Assembly: GCA_049969715.1 (NCBI GenBank)
Contig: JBMFOH010000011.1
Location: forward strand, 1-48,698
Source: JBMFOH01 sp049969715 [NCBI: bacterium]
GTDB taxonomy: Bacteria > DUMJ01
Reading direction: 5' to 3'
DNA: 48,698 nucleotides
In this document: one piece after another, positions 5,313 to 19,112 of the stretch
Layout: the number at the start of each line of letters is the position of its first letter
How positions within the stretch are numbered: the first letter of the stretch is position 1
Notes under the pieces: model-generated
The model's input: only the letters and a program-made list of their open reading frames with translations
Told to the model about the DNA's origin: nothing
Databases searched by the model: none
Made by a program: the position numbers and the translations under genes

Positions 5313-5816
5313 TTAAAATTTCTTGAATTTCTCTCTAGGTGCTCCGCATATAGGGCATCTCTCAGGAGCTTCACCCTCCACCGTGTGCCCACATACCTGA
5401 CATATGTATATGCTTCCTACATCTGCATCTTTACCTTCATCAACCGCCCTCTTTGCTTTTTGATACATAACTGAGTGTATCTTTTCTGCCTCAATTGCAT
5501 AATGAATACTTCTTATAGCCTCTTTTTCTTCCTGCAATTGAGCTACAGCATTGAAGGCAGGATACATCTCCTCTATCTCGTAGTTCTCACCGTCTATGCA
5601 TACCTGTATATTCTCGGAAGACCCTTTAATCATTTCCAATGCCCTAAAGTGGTTAGTGGCATGGACCTTTTCTGCATCAGATATCGCTCTAAAAAGCCTA
5701 GCAAGATTAGGTTTTCCTTCCTTCTCTGCAATCTCAGCAAAGATTAGATACCTCATATGGGCTTGACTCTCTCCAGCAAAAGCAGCCTTTAGATTCTCCT
5801 CTGTCATCTTCCTCAT
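5313..5816 (-). CDS. rbr: Rubrerythrin
   Basis: A 167-residue non-haem iron protein that reduces hydrogen peroxide in anaerobes, taking electrons from reduced rubredoxin-type partners. Residues 1-130 form the ferritin-like di-iron domain, with metal-ligand motifs GESQAHMRY, DAEKVHATNHF and AIEAEKIHS. The C-terminus is a rubredoxin-like domain with two knuckles, CQVCG and CPICG, and ends in FKKF. Its length is slightly short of the usual 180-190 but complete. AAAGGAGGA precedes the ATG. It lies downstream of ogg on the same strand, so peroxide removal and oxidative DNA repair are adjacent. A separate promoter overlaps the end of ogg. Confidence 0.95.
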   Translation of the reverse strand: MRKMTEENLKAAFAGESQAHMRYLIFAEIAEKEGKPNLARLFRAISDAEKVHATNHFRALEMIKGSSENIQVCIDGENYEIEEMYPAFNAVAQLQEEKEAIRSIHYAIEAEKIHSVMYQKAKRAVDEGKDADVGSIYICQVCGHTVEGEAPERCPICGAPREKFKKF

Positions 5817-5889: not shown

Positions 5890-6525
5890 CTACTTCTCTA
5901 CCTTCCCTTTGATGAGATACCAAAGGTAAAGGTCTGTCTCACCAGGGGATTTTCTAAATCTATCAGACAGTTTCTTAAAGACCTCTTCTATATAATTATA
6001 CCTTACTTCTGTCCAGCCCTTAGGGATTCTAACTATCAATCCTTCATCGAATAGTATCTTTAGAATATGGCGATCCAAGATTGCAACGTCTAGTATTCCT
6101 ACATTCCTCAAAAAGTGGCTAGCTTCTTTCCATCCTATACCTTTAGCCTCTCTTACCAGTGTTTTCCTTGCCTCTTTTGTGGGAAGGGATACGATATCTT
6201 TTAAACTTCCTATCAGTCTTCTATTTTCTATAATGAATTCTGCCCTCTTATTAGGAAACCTATGTCCTCTTCTTGAAAGGGCTTTAGAAAGCTCTTCAAG
6301 GGTAAACTCCAAAAAACCGATAGGTCCTATCTCTTTTTGAGCTCTCATCCCTCCAGATGCACTCCAATTAGCAGTAAGAACGCAGAAGCTTAATTCTGAG
6401 AATAGTTCCAATTCTGAACCAAATAGCCCTAGGTTCTTAAACTCCTCTATCCTCTCTTCTACAAGACTCTTCGCCTCTTCTTCTATACTTTTCAACATTC
6501 CTAAGATCCTATCAAGGTTCTCCAT
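5890..6525 (-). CDS. ogg: N-glycosylase/DNA lyase, Ogg2-type 8-oxoguanine DNA glycosylase
   Basis: A 211-residue base-excision repair enzyme that removes 8-oxoguanine and nicks the abasic site. It has the short architecture of the Ogg2 family, found mainly in archaea and thermophilic bacteria, with no N-terminal TBP-like domain. The helix-hairpin-helix GPD core shows the catalytic lysine in GIGWKEASHFLRN (near residue 136) and the essential aspartate in AILDRHIL (near 153). The early TANWSASGG segment is also typical. The start codon lies 7 nt from a predicted extended -10 box, with no ribosome binding site, so the message may be leaderless. It is divergent from namZ and followed by rubrerythrin. 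Confidence 0.9.
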   Translation of the reverse strand: MENLDRILGMLKSIEEEAKSLVEERIEEFKNLGLFGSELELFSELSFCVLTANWSASGGMRAQKEIGPIGFLEFTLEELSKALSRRGHRFPNKRAEFIIENRRLIGSLKDIVSLPTKEARKTLVREAKGIGWKEASHFLRNVGILDVAILDRHILKILFDEGLIVRIPKGWTEVRYNYIEEVFKKLSDRFRKSPGETDLYLWYLIKGKVEK

Positions 6526-6562
6526 ATACCTAATATACCACAGTTATGGTATAATTTGAAGT
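6526..6562. promoter_or_regulatory. Divergent extended -10 promoters, both predicted leaderless
   Basis: This 37-bp gap holds two back-to-back promoters. On the plus strand, TGGTATAAT (6547-6555) ends 7 nt before the namZ ATG at 6563. On the minus strand, TGGTATATT (complement of 6532-6540) ends 6 nt before the ogg ATG at 6525. Both have the TGn extension and neither has a convincing -35 or ribosome binding site. Bacterial transcription starts 6-8 nt after the -10, so both mRNAs should begin at or next to the A of ATG. The two boxes are arms of an inverted repeat (TATACCA ... TGGTATA). Confidence 0.6.
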
Positions 6563-7789
6563 ATGAGATGGACCCTTTTGGTTTTAGGAGTTATAAGCCT
6601 AATTATGTTAATTAATCCTGTTTTTTCTAATCCTAGAATAAAACTAGGTATTGAGGTACTGCTTGAAGAAAATATAAAGTTAATAAAGGGTAAGAGGATA
6701 GGTCTTATCACTAATCAGACCGGTGTAGATAGTCACCTAAGGACTGATATAGACCTACTTTCTGTGATTCCCGATATAAGATTGATGGCTTTATTTGGGC
6801 CAGAGCATGGGATAGATGGTTCTATCCCTAGAGGAACGTATGTAAAGAGTTATATAGATAAGGAGACTGGTATTCCTGTCTATAGTCTCTATGGAGACAC
6901 AAGGAAACCAACTAAGGATATGTTAAAAGATATAGATGTTCTTCTCTTTGATATCCAGGATGTAGGTACAAGATACTATACCTATATATATACTATGGCA
7001 TTAGCTATGGAATCAGCTAAAGAAAATGGCATAGATTTTGTAGTCCTTGATAGGCCCAATCCTCTAAATGGCATAAGTGTAGAGGGCCCTGTATTGGAAC
7101 CTCCGTTTTCCTCGTTTATAGGTATGTATCCTATACCATTAAGACACGGAATGACTATTGGAGAATTGGCTCAACTCTTTAATAAGGAATTTAAGATAGG
7201 CGCCAGATTGACAGTAGTGCCTATGAAGAATTGGACAAGAGATATGTGGTTTGATGATACAGGATTAAATTGGGTTATCTCCTCCCCAAATATACCAGAT
7301 TTCGAATCAGTCTTACTTTACCCTTGCACAGGTCCTATTGGTGATACAAATATCTCTGTTGGTATTGGAACAACGAAACCATTCCATTTTGTAGGAGCTC
7401 CCTATATCGATTCTTCTATGCTACTGAAAGAATTGAACAAGAAGAGTCTGCCAGGAATACTCTTTAGAAAGGCTCACTTTATTCCTCAATTTGATAGGTA
7501 CGAAAAAGAAGTATGTAATGGGGTGGAATTCTTTATAACAGACAGGAAGGCATTTAAGCCTATAGAAACCTGCCTTACTATTATAGAGATTATCCATAGA
7601 TTATACCCAGATAGATTTAACTGGGGAGATAAATCAGGAGGGAGATACTTCTTTGATCTAAGTATGGGAACAGATAAGGTTAGGTTGAGTATAGAGAGAG
7701 GACTATCAGTGAAAGAGATAGTAAACTTATGGACGAAGGGTCTAGAAAGGTTTATCTCCTTACGGGAAGGGTATCTATTGTATAGATAG
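6563..7789 (+). CDS. namZ: NamZ-type exo-beta-N-acetylmuramidase (DUF1343, GH171)
   Basis: A 408-residue DUF1343 protein. Characterised members release terminal MurNAc from peptidoglycan fragments. The first 24 residues are a signal peptide (LLVLGVISLIMLI core), consistent with action on cell-wall fragments outside the membrane. Family hallmarks follow in order: GKRIGLITNQTGVD near residue 44, ALFGPEHG near 77, LFDIQDVGTRYYTYIYTM near 131-148, VLDRPNPLNG near 163 and SPNIPDFESVLLYPCTG near 243. The protein has about the usual length. It heads an operon with a BadF-type kinase (1 nt gap) and murQ, which supports the muramic-acid role. Its start appears leaderless. The sequence itself does not distinguish it from other DUF1343 activities. 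Confidence 0.85.
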   Translation: MRWTLLVLGVISLIMLINPVFSNPRIKLGIEVLLEENIKLIKGKRIGLITNQTGVDSHLRTDIDLLSVIPDIRLMALFGPEHGIDGSIPRGTYVKSYIDKETGIPVYSLYGDTRKPTKDMLKDIDVLLFDIQDVGTRYYTYIYTMALAMESAKENGIDFVVLDRPNPLNGISVEGPVLEPPFSSFIGMYPIPLRHGMTIGELAQLFNKEFKIGARLTVVPMKNWTRDMWFDDTGLNWVISSPNIPDFESVLLYPCTGPIGDTNISVGIGTTKPFHFVGAPYIDSSMLLKELNKKSLPGILFRKAHFIPQFDRYEKEVCNGVEFFITDRKAFKPIETCLTIIEIIHRLYPDRFNWGDKSGGRYFFDLSMGTDKVRLSIERGLSVKEIVNLWTKGLERFISLREGYLLYR

Positions 7790-16933: not shown

Positions 16934-17461
16934 ATTAGGGAATTAGGCTTTTCTGAGAACGAATTAAAGCTTATAAGAATAGCTGGTTATCTGCACGACA
17001 TAGGTAAAGTAGCTATCCCGATAGAGATTCTAGAAAAGCCAGATATATTGACTGAGGAAGAGTATAACATAATAAAACTTCATGCTTATTATTCTTACAG
17101 GATATTAGAACATATAGAAGGCTTAGAATTAATAAATGAGTGGGGGTCGTTTCACCATGAAAGGCTTGATGGTAGCGGATATCCTTTTGGTATAAAGGGA
17201 GATGGTCTATCTCTAGGCTCTAGAATTATAGCTATTGCCGATGTATTTACTGCACTTATAGAAGATAGACCCTACAGAAGAGGAATGGACATAGATGAGG
17301 CTTTGGATAATATCAGAAGTCTAGTAAGGGCTAATAAATTAGACAGGTATATCTTTTCTGTCTTAGAGAGGAATGTAATTTCGATGGGAGAAAGGCTATC
17401 CTCTGTAAAACAGATAGCATTAGGAAGATTTTCAAGATTCTATCCTGAGATAAAGGGGTGA
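16925..17461 (+). pseudogene. HD-GYP domain gene lacking its 5' end
   Basis: An open frame runs from just after an in-frame TGA (16922-16924) to 17461. It encodes most of an HD-GYP domain, which degrades cyclic di-GMP: LHDIGKVAIP (16991 onward), the HHERLDGSGYP motif, and IIAIADVFTALIEDRPYRRG. The first histidine-containing helices of the domain and any sensor region are absent, and no ATG, GTG or TTG occurs before the HD motif. The first TTG (17048) would leave out HDIGK. The simplest reading is a gene cut off at its 5' end beside the hairpin. A non-standard start (ATA 16931 or ATT 16934) cannot be excluded. It ends 4 nt before the bacteriohemerythrin gene. Confidence 0.6.
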
Positions 17462-17465
17462 GATT

Positions 17466-17870
17466 ATGCCATTAGTATGGAATGATTCTTTATTAACTGG
17501 TGTAGTAATAATCGACTCTCAACATAAGGAGCTTTTTAGAAGGATAAATGAGCTTCTAGAATCTGCTGGAAGGAGTAAGGAGAGGATCCAGGAAATTACA
17601 GATTTCTTACAGAATTACGTAAGAAACCACTTTTTGACTGAAGAGACACTTATGCAAAGGGCTAACTATCCAGAGTATCAACTCCATAAGAGAGCTCATG
17701 ACAAGTATAGTCAAGATTTTAAAGAGTTAAAAGATACCATAGATAAAGAGGGGATTAATCTCAATCTAACCGTCAAAATGAATCAACTAATGATAGATTG
17801 GTGGATAAATCATATAAACAGCGTAGACAAAAAGATGGCTCAATTTCTAAAAGAGAAAAGGGTTTCATAG
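17466..17870 (+). CDS. Bacteriohemerythrin
   Basis: A 134-residue single-domain hemerythrin, a four-helix bundle that binds O2 reversibly at a di-iron site. Ligand residues are in place: the histidine in DSQHKELF near residue 20, the His and Glu in NHFLTEETLM near 57-61, LHKRAH near 75-80, and NHINSVDK near 117-124. It starts LVWNDSLLTGVVIIDSQH, typical of the family. It follows the HD-GYP fragment by 4 nt and precedes a second hemerythrin-domain protein, so the group may respond to oxygen or nitric oxide. Such proteins may scavenge or shuttle O2 in anaerobes. Confidence 0.93.
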   Translation: MPLVWNDSLLTGVVIIDSQHKELFRRINELLESAGRSKERIQEITDFLQNYVRNHFLTEETLMQRANYPEYQLHKRAHDKYSQDFKELKDTIDKEGINLNLTVKMNQLMIDWWINHINSVDKKMAQFLKEKRVS

Positions 17871-17891
17871 GCTTTAATTAAGTTATCAGAT

Positions 17892-19112
17892 TTGGAGGGA
17901 AAAATAAGTGAAATTTTAGGTAAAGAAAAGGACAGAAAGGAGATATTAAAAGAGATTATCAGAAAACTTCATCTTGGGGGAGACCCTTTAGAGGCTAAGA
18001 AACAGTTTAAGGAGCTCTTGGGTAGTGTGGACGCCTTGGAAATCTCCAAAGTGGAGCAGGAGCTAGTAAAGGAAGGCATATCAAGAGACGAGATTCAAAA
18101 ATTATGCGAAGTCCACTTAGAAATATTTAAGGGGTCTCTTGAGAAGAAAGAGGAAGACTTAAAAGCAGGACATCCCATAAATATTCTCAGGGAAGAACAC
18201 AGAATATTACTAGACTTTGCTATTAGACTCCAGAATATTATAAAGGAATCAGATATCCTTGAAAGATTTGCTGAGAGAAAGGCGGAAATTCTTGATATAA
18301 TAGAACATCTTAAAGAATCAGAGAAACACTATCTTAGAGAAGAAAATGTCTTATTCCCTTATCTAGAAAAACATGGAATAACTGAACCTCCCGCTGTAAT
18401 GTGGAAAGAACATGATATGATTCGTTCAGTAAAGAAAGAGATATATTCTAATATTGAAAGGGTAGAGGAAGAACCTCAAGATTCTCTCAATAAACTAAGA
18501 TCACTTACAGAGGGCTTATCTCAACTACTCTCTAGCCATTTCTATAAGGAGAATAATATACTCTTTCCCACAGGCTTGAGGGTCATTCAGGATAGAGAGT
18601 GGATAGAGATAAGAAGTCAGTTTGATGAAATAGGTTATTGCTGTTTCACCCCAGAATCTACCCTAGCACCTTTGGAGAAGGTAGAAGAGACCAAGATAGA
18701 AAAAGAAGAGGGAGTAATTGTTTTAGAAACAGGAACTTTCACCGTCGAAGAACTAGAAAGTATCCTAAATACCCTACCTGTAGATATAACATTTGTAGAT
18801 AAAAACGACTCTGTTAGATATTTTAGTCAGACTAAAGATAGGATATTTGTAAGGACCAAAGCTGTTATAGGTAGAAAGGTCCAGCAGTGCCATCCTCAGA
18901 AGAGTCTACATGTGGTTAACCAGATAATAGAGGATTTTAGAAGCGGAAAACGAGATTCAGCTGAGTTTTGGATTAATCTAAATAATAGACTTATCTACAT
19001 AAGATACTTTGCAGTCCGAGATAAAAATGGAAATTACCTCGGAACCTTAGAGGTAACTCAAGATATCACTAGTATAAAAAAGATAGAGGGAGAAAAAAGA
19101 CTGTTGGACTGA
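17892..19112 (+). CDS. DUF438 / hemerythrin HHE / PAS domain protein
   Basis: A 406-residue cytoplasmic protein in three parts. Residues 1-80 match DUF438 (RKEILKEIIRKLHLGGDP, then KELLGSVDALEISKVEQELVKEG). Residues 95-240 form a hemerythrin-like domain with REEHRILL, REENVLFPYLEKHG, MWKEHDMIR and SHFYKENNILFPTG supplying iron-binding His/Glu residues. Residues 280-400 form a PAS domain (VDITFVDKNDSVRYFS ... GRKVQQCHPQKS ... GTLEVTQDIT). The architecture suits a redox, O2 or NO sensor, but no output domain is attached. The start is the TTG at 17892. GGAGGG overlaps it, so the true initiation site is uncertain. Confidence 0.85.
   Translation: MEGKISEILGKEKDRKEILKEIIRKLHLGGDPLEAKKQFKELLGSVDALEISKVEQELVKEGISRDEIQKLCEVHLEIFKGSLEKKEEDLKAGHPINILREEHRILLDFAIRLQNIIKESDILERFAERKAEILDIIEHLKESEKHYLREENVLFPYLEKHGITEPPAVMWKEHDMIRSVKKEIYSNIERVEEEPQDSLNKLRSLTEGLSQLLSSHFYKENNILFPTGLRVIQDREWIEIRSQFDEIGYCCFTPESTLAPLEKVEETKIEKEEGVIVLETGTFTVEELESILNTLPVDITFVDKNDSVRYFSQTKDRIFVRTKAVIGRKVQQCHPQKSLHVVNQIIEDFRSGKRDSAEFWINLNNRLIYIRYFAVRDKNGNYLGTLEVTQDITSIKKIEGEKRLLD

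What the first reader, a model, noticed from the sequence alone, without database searches (positions are those of the whole stretch)
6526..6562. Two divergent genes with predicted leaderless mRNAs from mirrored extended -10 promoters
Within 37 bp, TGGTATAAT (plus) and TGGTATATT (minus) face outward and end 7 and 6 nt before the ATGs of namZ and ogg. Neither gene has a ribosome binding site, although most genes here have strong ones. The boxes form an inverted repeat, so one protein or RNA polymerase could occupy both. Two leaderless genes for cell-wall recycling and DNA repair sharing one minimal control region is unusual.
Basis: partly seen in the sequence, partly recalled or inferred. Interest (0 to 1): 0.6.

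Follow-up and report, generated by a model that had tools for sequence, protein, structure and literature searches.

The report
Back-to-back promoters of leaderless genes
Two neighbouring genes pointing away from each other, one for DNA repair and one for cell-wall recycling, probably make messenger RNAs that begin at the start codon itself; the repair gene keeps this feature in its close relatives, while the cell-wall gene's version and the pairing were seen in this genome alone, so this is a neat example of a known kind of gene start.

Summary
In the 37-bp gap 6526-6562, TGGTATAAT (6547-6555, +) ends 7 nt before the namZ ATG and TGGTATATT (6540-6532, -) ends 6 nt before the ogg ATG; neither start has a Shine-Dalgarno (SD) site. 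The leaderless reading is supported by comparison, strongly for ogg: in all three related genomes held (one small phylum), ogg has TGATAAAAT exactly 6 nt before the aligned start codon, with genes other than namZ upstream. Across those genomes TGNTANAAT opens long ORFs when 6-9 nt precede ATG (66 of 183 matches) but hardly at 5 or 11 nt (2 of 86); none of these 68 starts scores as SD-led. So a small class of (near-)leaderless genes exists there. namZ is different: its three orthologues are SD-led, with a leader and tRNA-Glu upstream. The head-to-head pair was found only in this genome, where two blocks that lie apart in the relatives meet, and the inverted repeat is what two copies of one promoter consensus give. 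Best reading: two separate, overlapping extended -10 promoters that compete for RNA polymerase and make near-leaderless mRNAs. New member of a known kind. No 5' ends were mapped.

The parts
6547..6555 (+). extended -10 element TGGTATAAT of namZ; 7 nt to ATG; best -35 only 3 of 6
6532..6540 (-). extended -10 element TGGTATATT of ogg; 6 nt to ATG
   Evidence: element TGATAAAAT at 6 nt in 3 of 3 related genomes
6555..6560 (-). possible -35 of ogg, TTCAAA (4 of 6, 17-nt spacer), starting at the last base of the namZ -10; the three relatives show no better than 3 of 6
6534..6553 (.). inverted repeat TATACCA-N6-TGGTATA formed by the two -10 regions
   Evidence: absent from the 73 loci held
5890..6525 (-). 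ogg, N-glycosylase/DNA lyase, 211 aa, predicted leaderless
6563..7789 (+). namZ, exo-beta-N-acetylmuramidase, 408 aa, N-terminus looks like a signal peptide (by eye); predicted leaderless or with a 1-2 nt leader
6585..6607 (+). rival internal start of namZ: TAGGAG 14 nt before the Met15 ATG (6605-6607), SD energy -6.8
5313..5816 (-). rubrerythrin gene downstream of ogg; a like gene follows ogg in L001 (G001), not in L012 (G003) or L074 (G004)

Best explanation
The gap holds two separate sigma-70-type extended -10 promoters facing outward. Each places the start of transcription at, or within one or two nucleotides of, the ATG, so both mRNAs are leaderless or nearly so and are started by ribosomes binding the 5'-terminal AUG without an SD contact. 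Shown: sequences, spacings, conservation of the ogg arrangement, and the phylum-wide spacing rule. Inferred: the actual start sites, and translation from the terminal AUG. The two -10 hexamers are 12 bp apart (centres 18 bp), so two RNA polymerases should not fit at once and the promoters should compete; this is inferred from polymerase size (recalled). The ogg promoter is the old part. namZ probably lost an ancestral leader and SD site when a rearrangement put it next to ogg, and took up or evolved a second extended -10; the direction of this change is inferred from three relatives.
For: ogg: TGATAAAAT + 6 nt + ATG in G001, G003 and G004 (L001, L012, L020); with the window's TGGTATATT + 6 nt this is 4 of 4; start methionines align without gaps. 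Ungapped identity is 0.20-0.56 upstream of the element and 0.67-1.0 within it. Spacing rule over three whole genomes: ATG opens an ORF of 100 aa or more in 0 of 36 (5 nt), 21 of 34 (6), 17 of 44 (7), 10 of 49 (8), 18 of 56 (9) and 2 of 50 (11) matches, and 0 of these 68 starts has SD energy of -6 or better; Fisher p 4e-11 for 6-9 against 5 and 11 (the genomes are related, so p is optimistic). Both window spacings lie in the allowed range. A 297-aa gene keeps the same arrangement in all three genomes. The namZ start at 6563 lines up, within two residues, with the hydrophobic N-termini of its orthologues. In bacteria generally a TANNNT signal about 12 bp upstream of the start codon marks leaderless genes (PMC3160421, passages).
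Against: No transcript data. namZ orthologues are SD-led with a leader (3 of 3), so the namZ half rests on one genome. An internal SD-like TAGGAG (-6.8) lies 14 nt before namZ Met15. On the Dictyoglomus side none of the 6 ogg genes examined has an extended -10 at 5-11 nt; in 5 of 6 ogg overlaps the end of another reading frame and in the sixth it begins just after one, so ogg is leaderless-like only in the window's own phylum (one of them, G008, has a plain TAAAAT 9 nt before its ATG). The window's ogg -10, TATATT, is not of the TANAAT form used in the phylum-wide count. The number of motif matches is not raised at 6-7 nt (34 and 44, against 36, 49, 56 and 51 at 5, 8, 9 and 11); only the share that opens genes is. 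In the G001 sample a gene-based profile gave just 2 extended -10s each at 6, 7 and 9 nt among 439 ATGs, and up to 3 at larger distances. PMC12825309 (Introduction) says direct clashes do not affect separate divergent promoters, which speaks against competition unless, as here, they overlap.
Confidence: 0.68

Rival explanations
1. Only ogg is leaderless. namZ is transcribed from about 6563 or further upstream and translated from Met15 using TAGGAG, giving a cytoplasmic NamZ without a signal peptide.
For: TAGGAG before Met15 with SD energy -6.8; second NamZ-like genes that look SD-led and lack an obvious signal peptide (by eye) exist in the relatives (L017, L018, L035); namZ orthologues are SD-led.
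Against: A 14-nt gap is long for an SD site (recalled); a start at Met15 would cut off an N-terminus that lines up with the orthologues' N-termini; a perfect extended -10 7 nt before the first ATG would be coincidence.
Confidence: 0.12
2. The inverted repeat is the operator of a dimeric repressor that controls both genes, and the -10 elements lie inside it.
For: Perfect 7-bp arms, 6-nt spacer, placed symmetrically over both promoters.
Against: One copy in the window, none in the 73 loci held; the ogg promoters of the three relatives show no such repeat (sequences, by eye); identical promoter elements give the repeat for free.
Confidence: 0.06
3. The ogg-namZ junction is an assembly chimera, so the pair does not exist in any cell.
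For: ogg and namZ lie on different contigs in all three relatives; the junction falls between two blocks whose order is known elsewhere.
Against: No repeat shared by both sides was noticed at the junction (not searched for specially); both promoters fit the phylum's spacing rule; both genes are about equally distant from the same relatives (namZ 65-66%, ogg 67-70%).
Confidence: 0.07
4. Both genes have ordinary longer transcripts from promoters inside the neighbouring gene, and the -10 matches are chance.
For: The motif with up to one mismatch is common here: 112 matches against 98 expected.
Against: Conservation at ogg, the spacing rule, and no SD site at either first ATG for a leader to use.
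Confidence: 0.07

Closest known systems
Leaderless (TA-led) bacterial genes, Zheng et al. 2011 (PMC3160421, passages seen)
   Same: -10-like TANNNT about 12 bp upstream of the start codon, no SD site. That survey also reports relatively more leaderless genes in information storage and processing.
   Different: Here an extended TGN -10, in an uncultured lineage; two such genes face away from each other over 37 bp.
Leaderless mycobacterial transcripts, Shell et al. 2015 (PMC4633059, passages seen)
   Different: Nearly a quarter of transcripts in mycobacteria; here about 22 gene starts per genome fit the strict motif (66 in three genomes).
Bidirectional promoters with symmetric -10 elements, Warman et al. 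2026 (PMC12825309, abstract and Introduction seen)
   Same: Opposed -10 elements close enough for polymerases to exclude each other.
   Different: Those share or overlap one -10, with start sites most often 18, also 10 or 23 bp apart; here two separate -10s and predicted start sites about 36-38 bp apart, nearer to what that paper calls separate divergent promoters.
ermE and aph leaderless genes of actinomycetes with a divergent neighbour (recalled, not looked up)
   Same: Leaderless gene with a divergent promoter close by.
   Different: Other genes and organisms; details were not checked.

Membership tests
Leaderless (TA-led) genes | -10-like element about 12 bp upstream of the start codon | tested here: met
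   TATAAT begins 13 nt (namZ) and TATATT 12 nt (ogg) before the ATGs
Leaderless (TA-led) genes | no SD site | tested here: met
   -2.8 for both, at background
Leaderless (TA-led) genes | arrangement conserved in orthologues | tested here: inconclusive
   ogg 3 of 3 close relatives but 0 of 6 on the Dictyoglomus side; namZ 0 of 3
Leaderless (TA-led) genes | mRNA 5' end at the start codon | not testable with these tools
   needs 5'-end mapping
Extended -10 promoters | TGN directly before the -10 | tested here: met
   TGG in both
Extended -10 promoters | works without a -35 element | not testable with these tools
   best -35 matches 3 of 6 (namZ) and 4 of 6 (ogg); activity needs an experiment
Bidirectional promoters (symmetric -10) | shared or overlapping -10, start sites about 10, 18 or 23 bp apart | tested here: not met
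   hexamers 12 bp apart, predicted start sites about 36-38 bp apart (criterion)
Palindromic operator of a repressor | further copies at other genes or conserved in relatives | tested here: not met
   single copy in window, 0 in 73 loci; the whole genome of the window is not held, so only this much could be tested

The most novel reading that the evidence does not exclude
This phylum keeps a small conserved set of leaderless genes rich in DNA replication and repair functions (ogg, dnaG, recO, an RNase HII-type and a MutS-type gene, with thymidine kinase beside them), translated by a route separate from SD-led genes, so that DNA maintenance could continue when normal initiation is impaired; namZ was recruited to it in this lineage.
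Probability: 0.08. Interest if true: 0.55.

Novelty: new member of a known kind. Interest (0 to 1): 0.3.

Why it matters
It gives comparative evidence for a small class of leaderless or nearly leaderless genes in an uncultured bacterial lineage distantly related to Dictyoglomus, and a case where one gene (namZ) seems to have changed from SD-led to leaderless at a rearrangement junction. The shared 37-bp region itself was found in no relative and has no demonstrated joint function.

Tried and rejected
Operator reading: no further copy of the repeat. Bidirectional promoter in the strict sense: the geometry differs. Conserved ogg-namZ pairing: absent in the three relatives; the namZ matches in G008 and G010 are only 41% and 40% identical, like the second namZ of the close relatives. 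A divergent leaderless pair elsewhere: with a relaxed motif (TGNTANNNT, 5-9 nt, up to 80 nt between) 5 raw matches in 1,885,915 bases held (overlaps and the window included); 2 of 5 have ORFs of 60 aa or more on both sides, and both are this gap, once with ogg Met1 and once with ogg Met10. Raw enrichment of the motif at 6-7 nt over other spacings: none, although at every spacing the matches outnumber the pattern read backwards (34 against 20 at 6 nt, 44 against 28 at 7, summed over G001, G003, G004). The gene-based profile on samples of G001 and G006 was too thin to decide. In G006, 11 matches at 6 nt are listed, 7 were fetched, and 3 of those 7 open an ORF of 100 aa or more near a stop. Rfam found only two tRNAs in the window at gathering scores. 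Literature: ('leaderless' with 'Dictyoglomus') returned one paper, off the subject by its title. Searches show 20 of 77, 15 of 317 and 8 of 81 papers; no listing seen there describes a pair of divergent leaderless genes, but listings only were read.

The function count (5 DNA replication or repair families of 18 conserved families) was not tested against a measured genome-wide background. One of the two gene starts at 11 nt is the second of two adjacent ATGs of a gene also counted at 8 nt.

Full report
What is there. The gap between the two start codons is 37 bp. On the plus strand TGGTATAAT (6547-6555) is followed by TTGAAGT and the namZ ATG at 6563. On the minus strand TGGTATATT (6540-6532) is followed by AGGTAT and the ogg ATG at 6525. 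Pfam confirms both genes, NCBIfam confirms Ogg. Downstream of namZ come an N-acetylglucosamine kinase-like gene (best NCBIfam hit below its cut-off) and an N-acetylmuramic acid 6-phosphate etherase. Neither start has an SD site: both score -2.8, background median -2.65. Of 44 window genes I listed by hand, 20 pass the 5% background cut and 27 are at -5.8 or better, so 'most genes have strong ones' is generous.

Chance. TGNTATAWT occurs 17 times on the two strands of the window; at four allowed spacings this gives about 0.0007 per gene and 5e-7 for both of one pair. In the looser form TGNTANNNT it is 0.007 per gene and 5e-5 for a pair. The pair was picked by eye, so these figures are a guide only.

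Relatives. The genome of the window is not held. G001, G003 and G004, all that is held of one small phylum, are its relatives: LepA is 85% identical in each, against 60% in G002, whose contig L002 is titled an uncultured Dictyoglomus. That the window belongs to the same phylum is inferred from these identities. ogg occurs in 3 of 3 and in 6 of 7 genomes of G002's phylum.

ogg. In the three close relatives ogg has TGATAAAAT exactly 6 nt before a start codon that aligns with the window's. Ungapped identity upstream of the element is 0.20-0.56, within it 0.67-1.0. Named by eye, the divergent neighbour upstream is a peptidase-like gene in G001 and a sugar-isomerase-like gene in G004, with a fragment of the same kind in G003; so the relatives show two contexts, neither with namZ. 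This is good evidence that the element and its spacing are kept as a near-leaderless promoter. It does not reach further: on the Dictyoglomus side 0 of 6 have it, and ogg there overlaps (5 of 6) or closely follows (1 of 6) another reading frame; four of the six have SD energies of -6.4 to -7.7 at the start (G009, G010, G007, G002), while G006 and G008 are weaker (-2.4, -3.1).

namZ. The orthologues in G001, G003 and G004 (65-66% identical) have SD sites (-8.3, -7.3, -7.8) and a tRNA-Glu(CTC) 176, 172 and 194 nt upstream. They lie on other contigs than ogg. So the pairing and the namZ promoter are known from this genome only. The distance from namZ to LepA is about 6.6 kb in the window and in all three relatives, and an ogg-rubrerythrin order is shared with G001 but not with G003 or G004. 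The gap is thus where two blocks found apart in the relatives meet.

The spacing rule. I searched the three genomes for TGNTANAAT followed by exactly 5, 6, 7, 8, 9 or 11 nt and ATG (10 nt was not searched) and held the DNA of every listed match but one of the 51 at 11 nt. ATG opens an ORF of 100 aa or more, with an in-frame stop within 25 codons upstream, in 0 of 36, 21 of 34, 17 of 44, 10 of 49, 18 of 56 and 2 of 50 matches. None of these 68 starts has SD energy of -6 or better. Nothing at 5 nt and little at 11 nt is what initiation at or just before the AUG predicts. The matches themselves are not more numerous at 6-7 nt than at other spacings. Eighteen families recur in at least two genomes at 6-9 nt, none at 5 or 11. 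The genomes are related, so matches are not independent. By Pfam the families include thymidine kinase, DnaG, RecO, an AadA-like nucleotidyltransferase, an RNase HII-type and a MutS-type protein, TsaE and others, beside ogg. Five of 18 are DNA replication or repair (ogg, DnaG, RecO, RNase HII-type, MutS-type); whether that is more than expected was not measured, and Zheng et al. already report relatively more leaderless genes in information storage and processing (PMC3160421, passages).

Mechanism. Extended -10 promoters need little or no -35 (recalled). With about 7 bp from -10 to start site (PMC12825309, Introduction), the ogg mRNA would begin at the A of ATG and the namZ mRNA at the A of ATG or at a base one or two before it. 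Translation of such RNAs by 70S ribosomes binding a 5'-terminal AUG is described elsewhere (PMC9031893, passages; PMC4633059, passages). The two -10 hexamers are 12 bp apart, so the promoters overlap and should exclude each other; that is inference from polymerase size (recalled), and the same 2026 paper says that separate divergent promoters are not affected by such clashes. The inverted repeat follows from two promoters of one consensus and no other copy was found.

Verdict. It is a new member of a known kind.

Noticed in passing
G001, G003, G004 (loci listed): A set of gene starts 6-9 nt after an extended -10 and without SD sites; 5 of 18 conserved families are DNA replication or repair proteins.
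   Followed up: partly
L037, L087, L088: A 297-aa protein without a Pfam match has the same near-leaderless start in all three genomes, with an almost unchanged 45 nt upstream.
   Followed up: no
L031 (G002:C190): The LepA reading frame carries one TAG inside; an assembly error or a broken gene.
   Followed up: no
window 17048-19112: ORFs 17048-17461 and 17892-19112 begin at TTG without an SD site; starts or frames may be wrong there.
   Followed up: no
L022, L024, L025, L026, L027: On the Dictyoglomus side ogg starts inside the end of the preceding reading frame (stop codon beginning 11 nt after the ATG's first base in 5 of 6), a layout that suggests coupled translation there.
   Followed up: no
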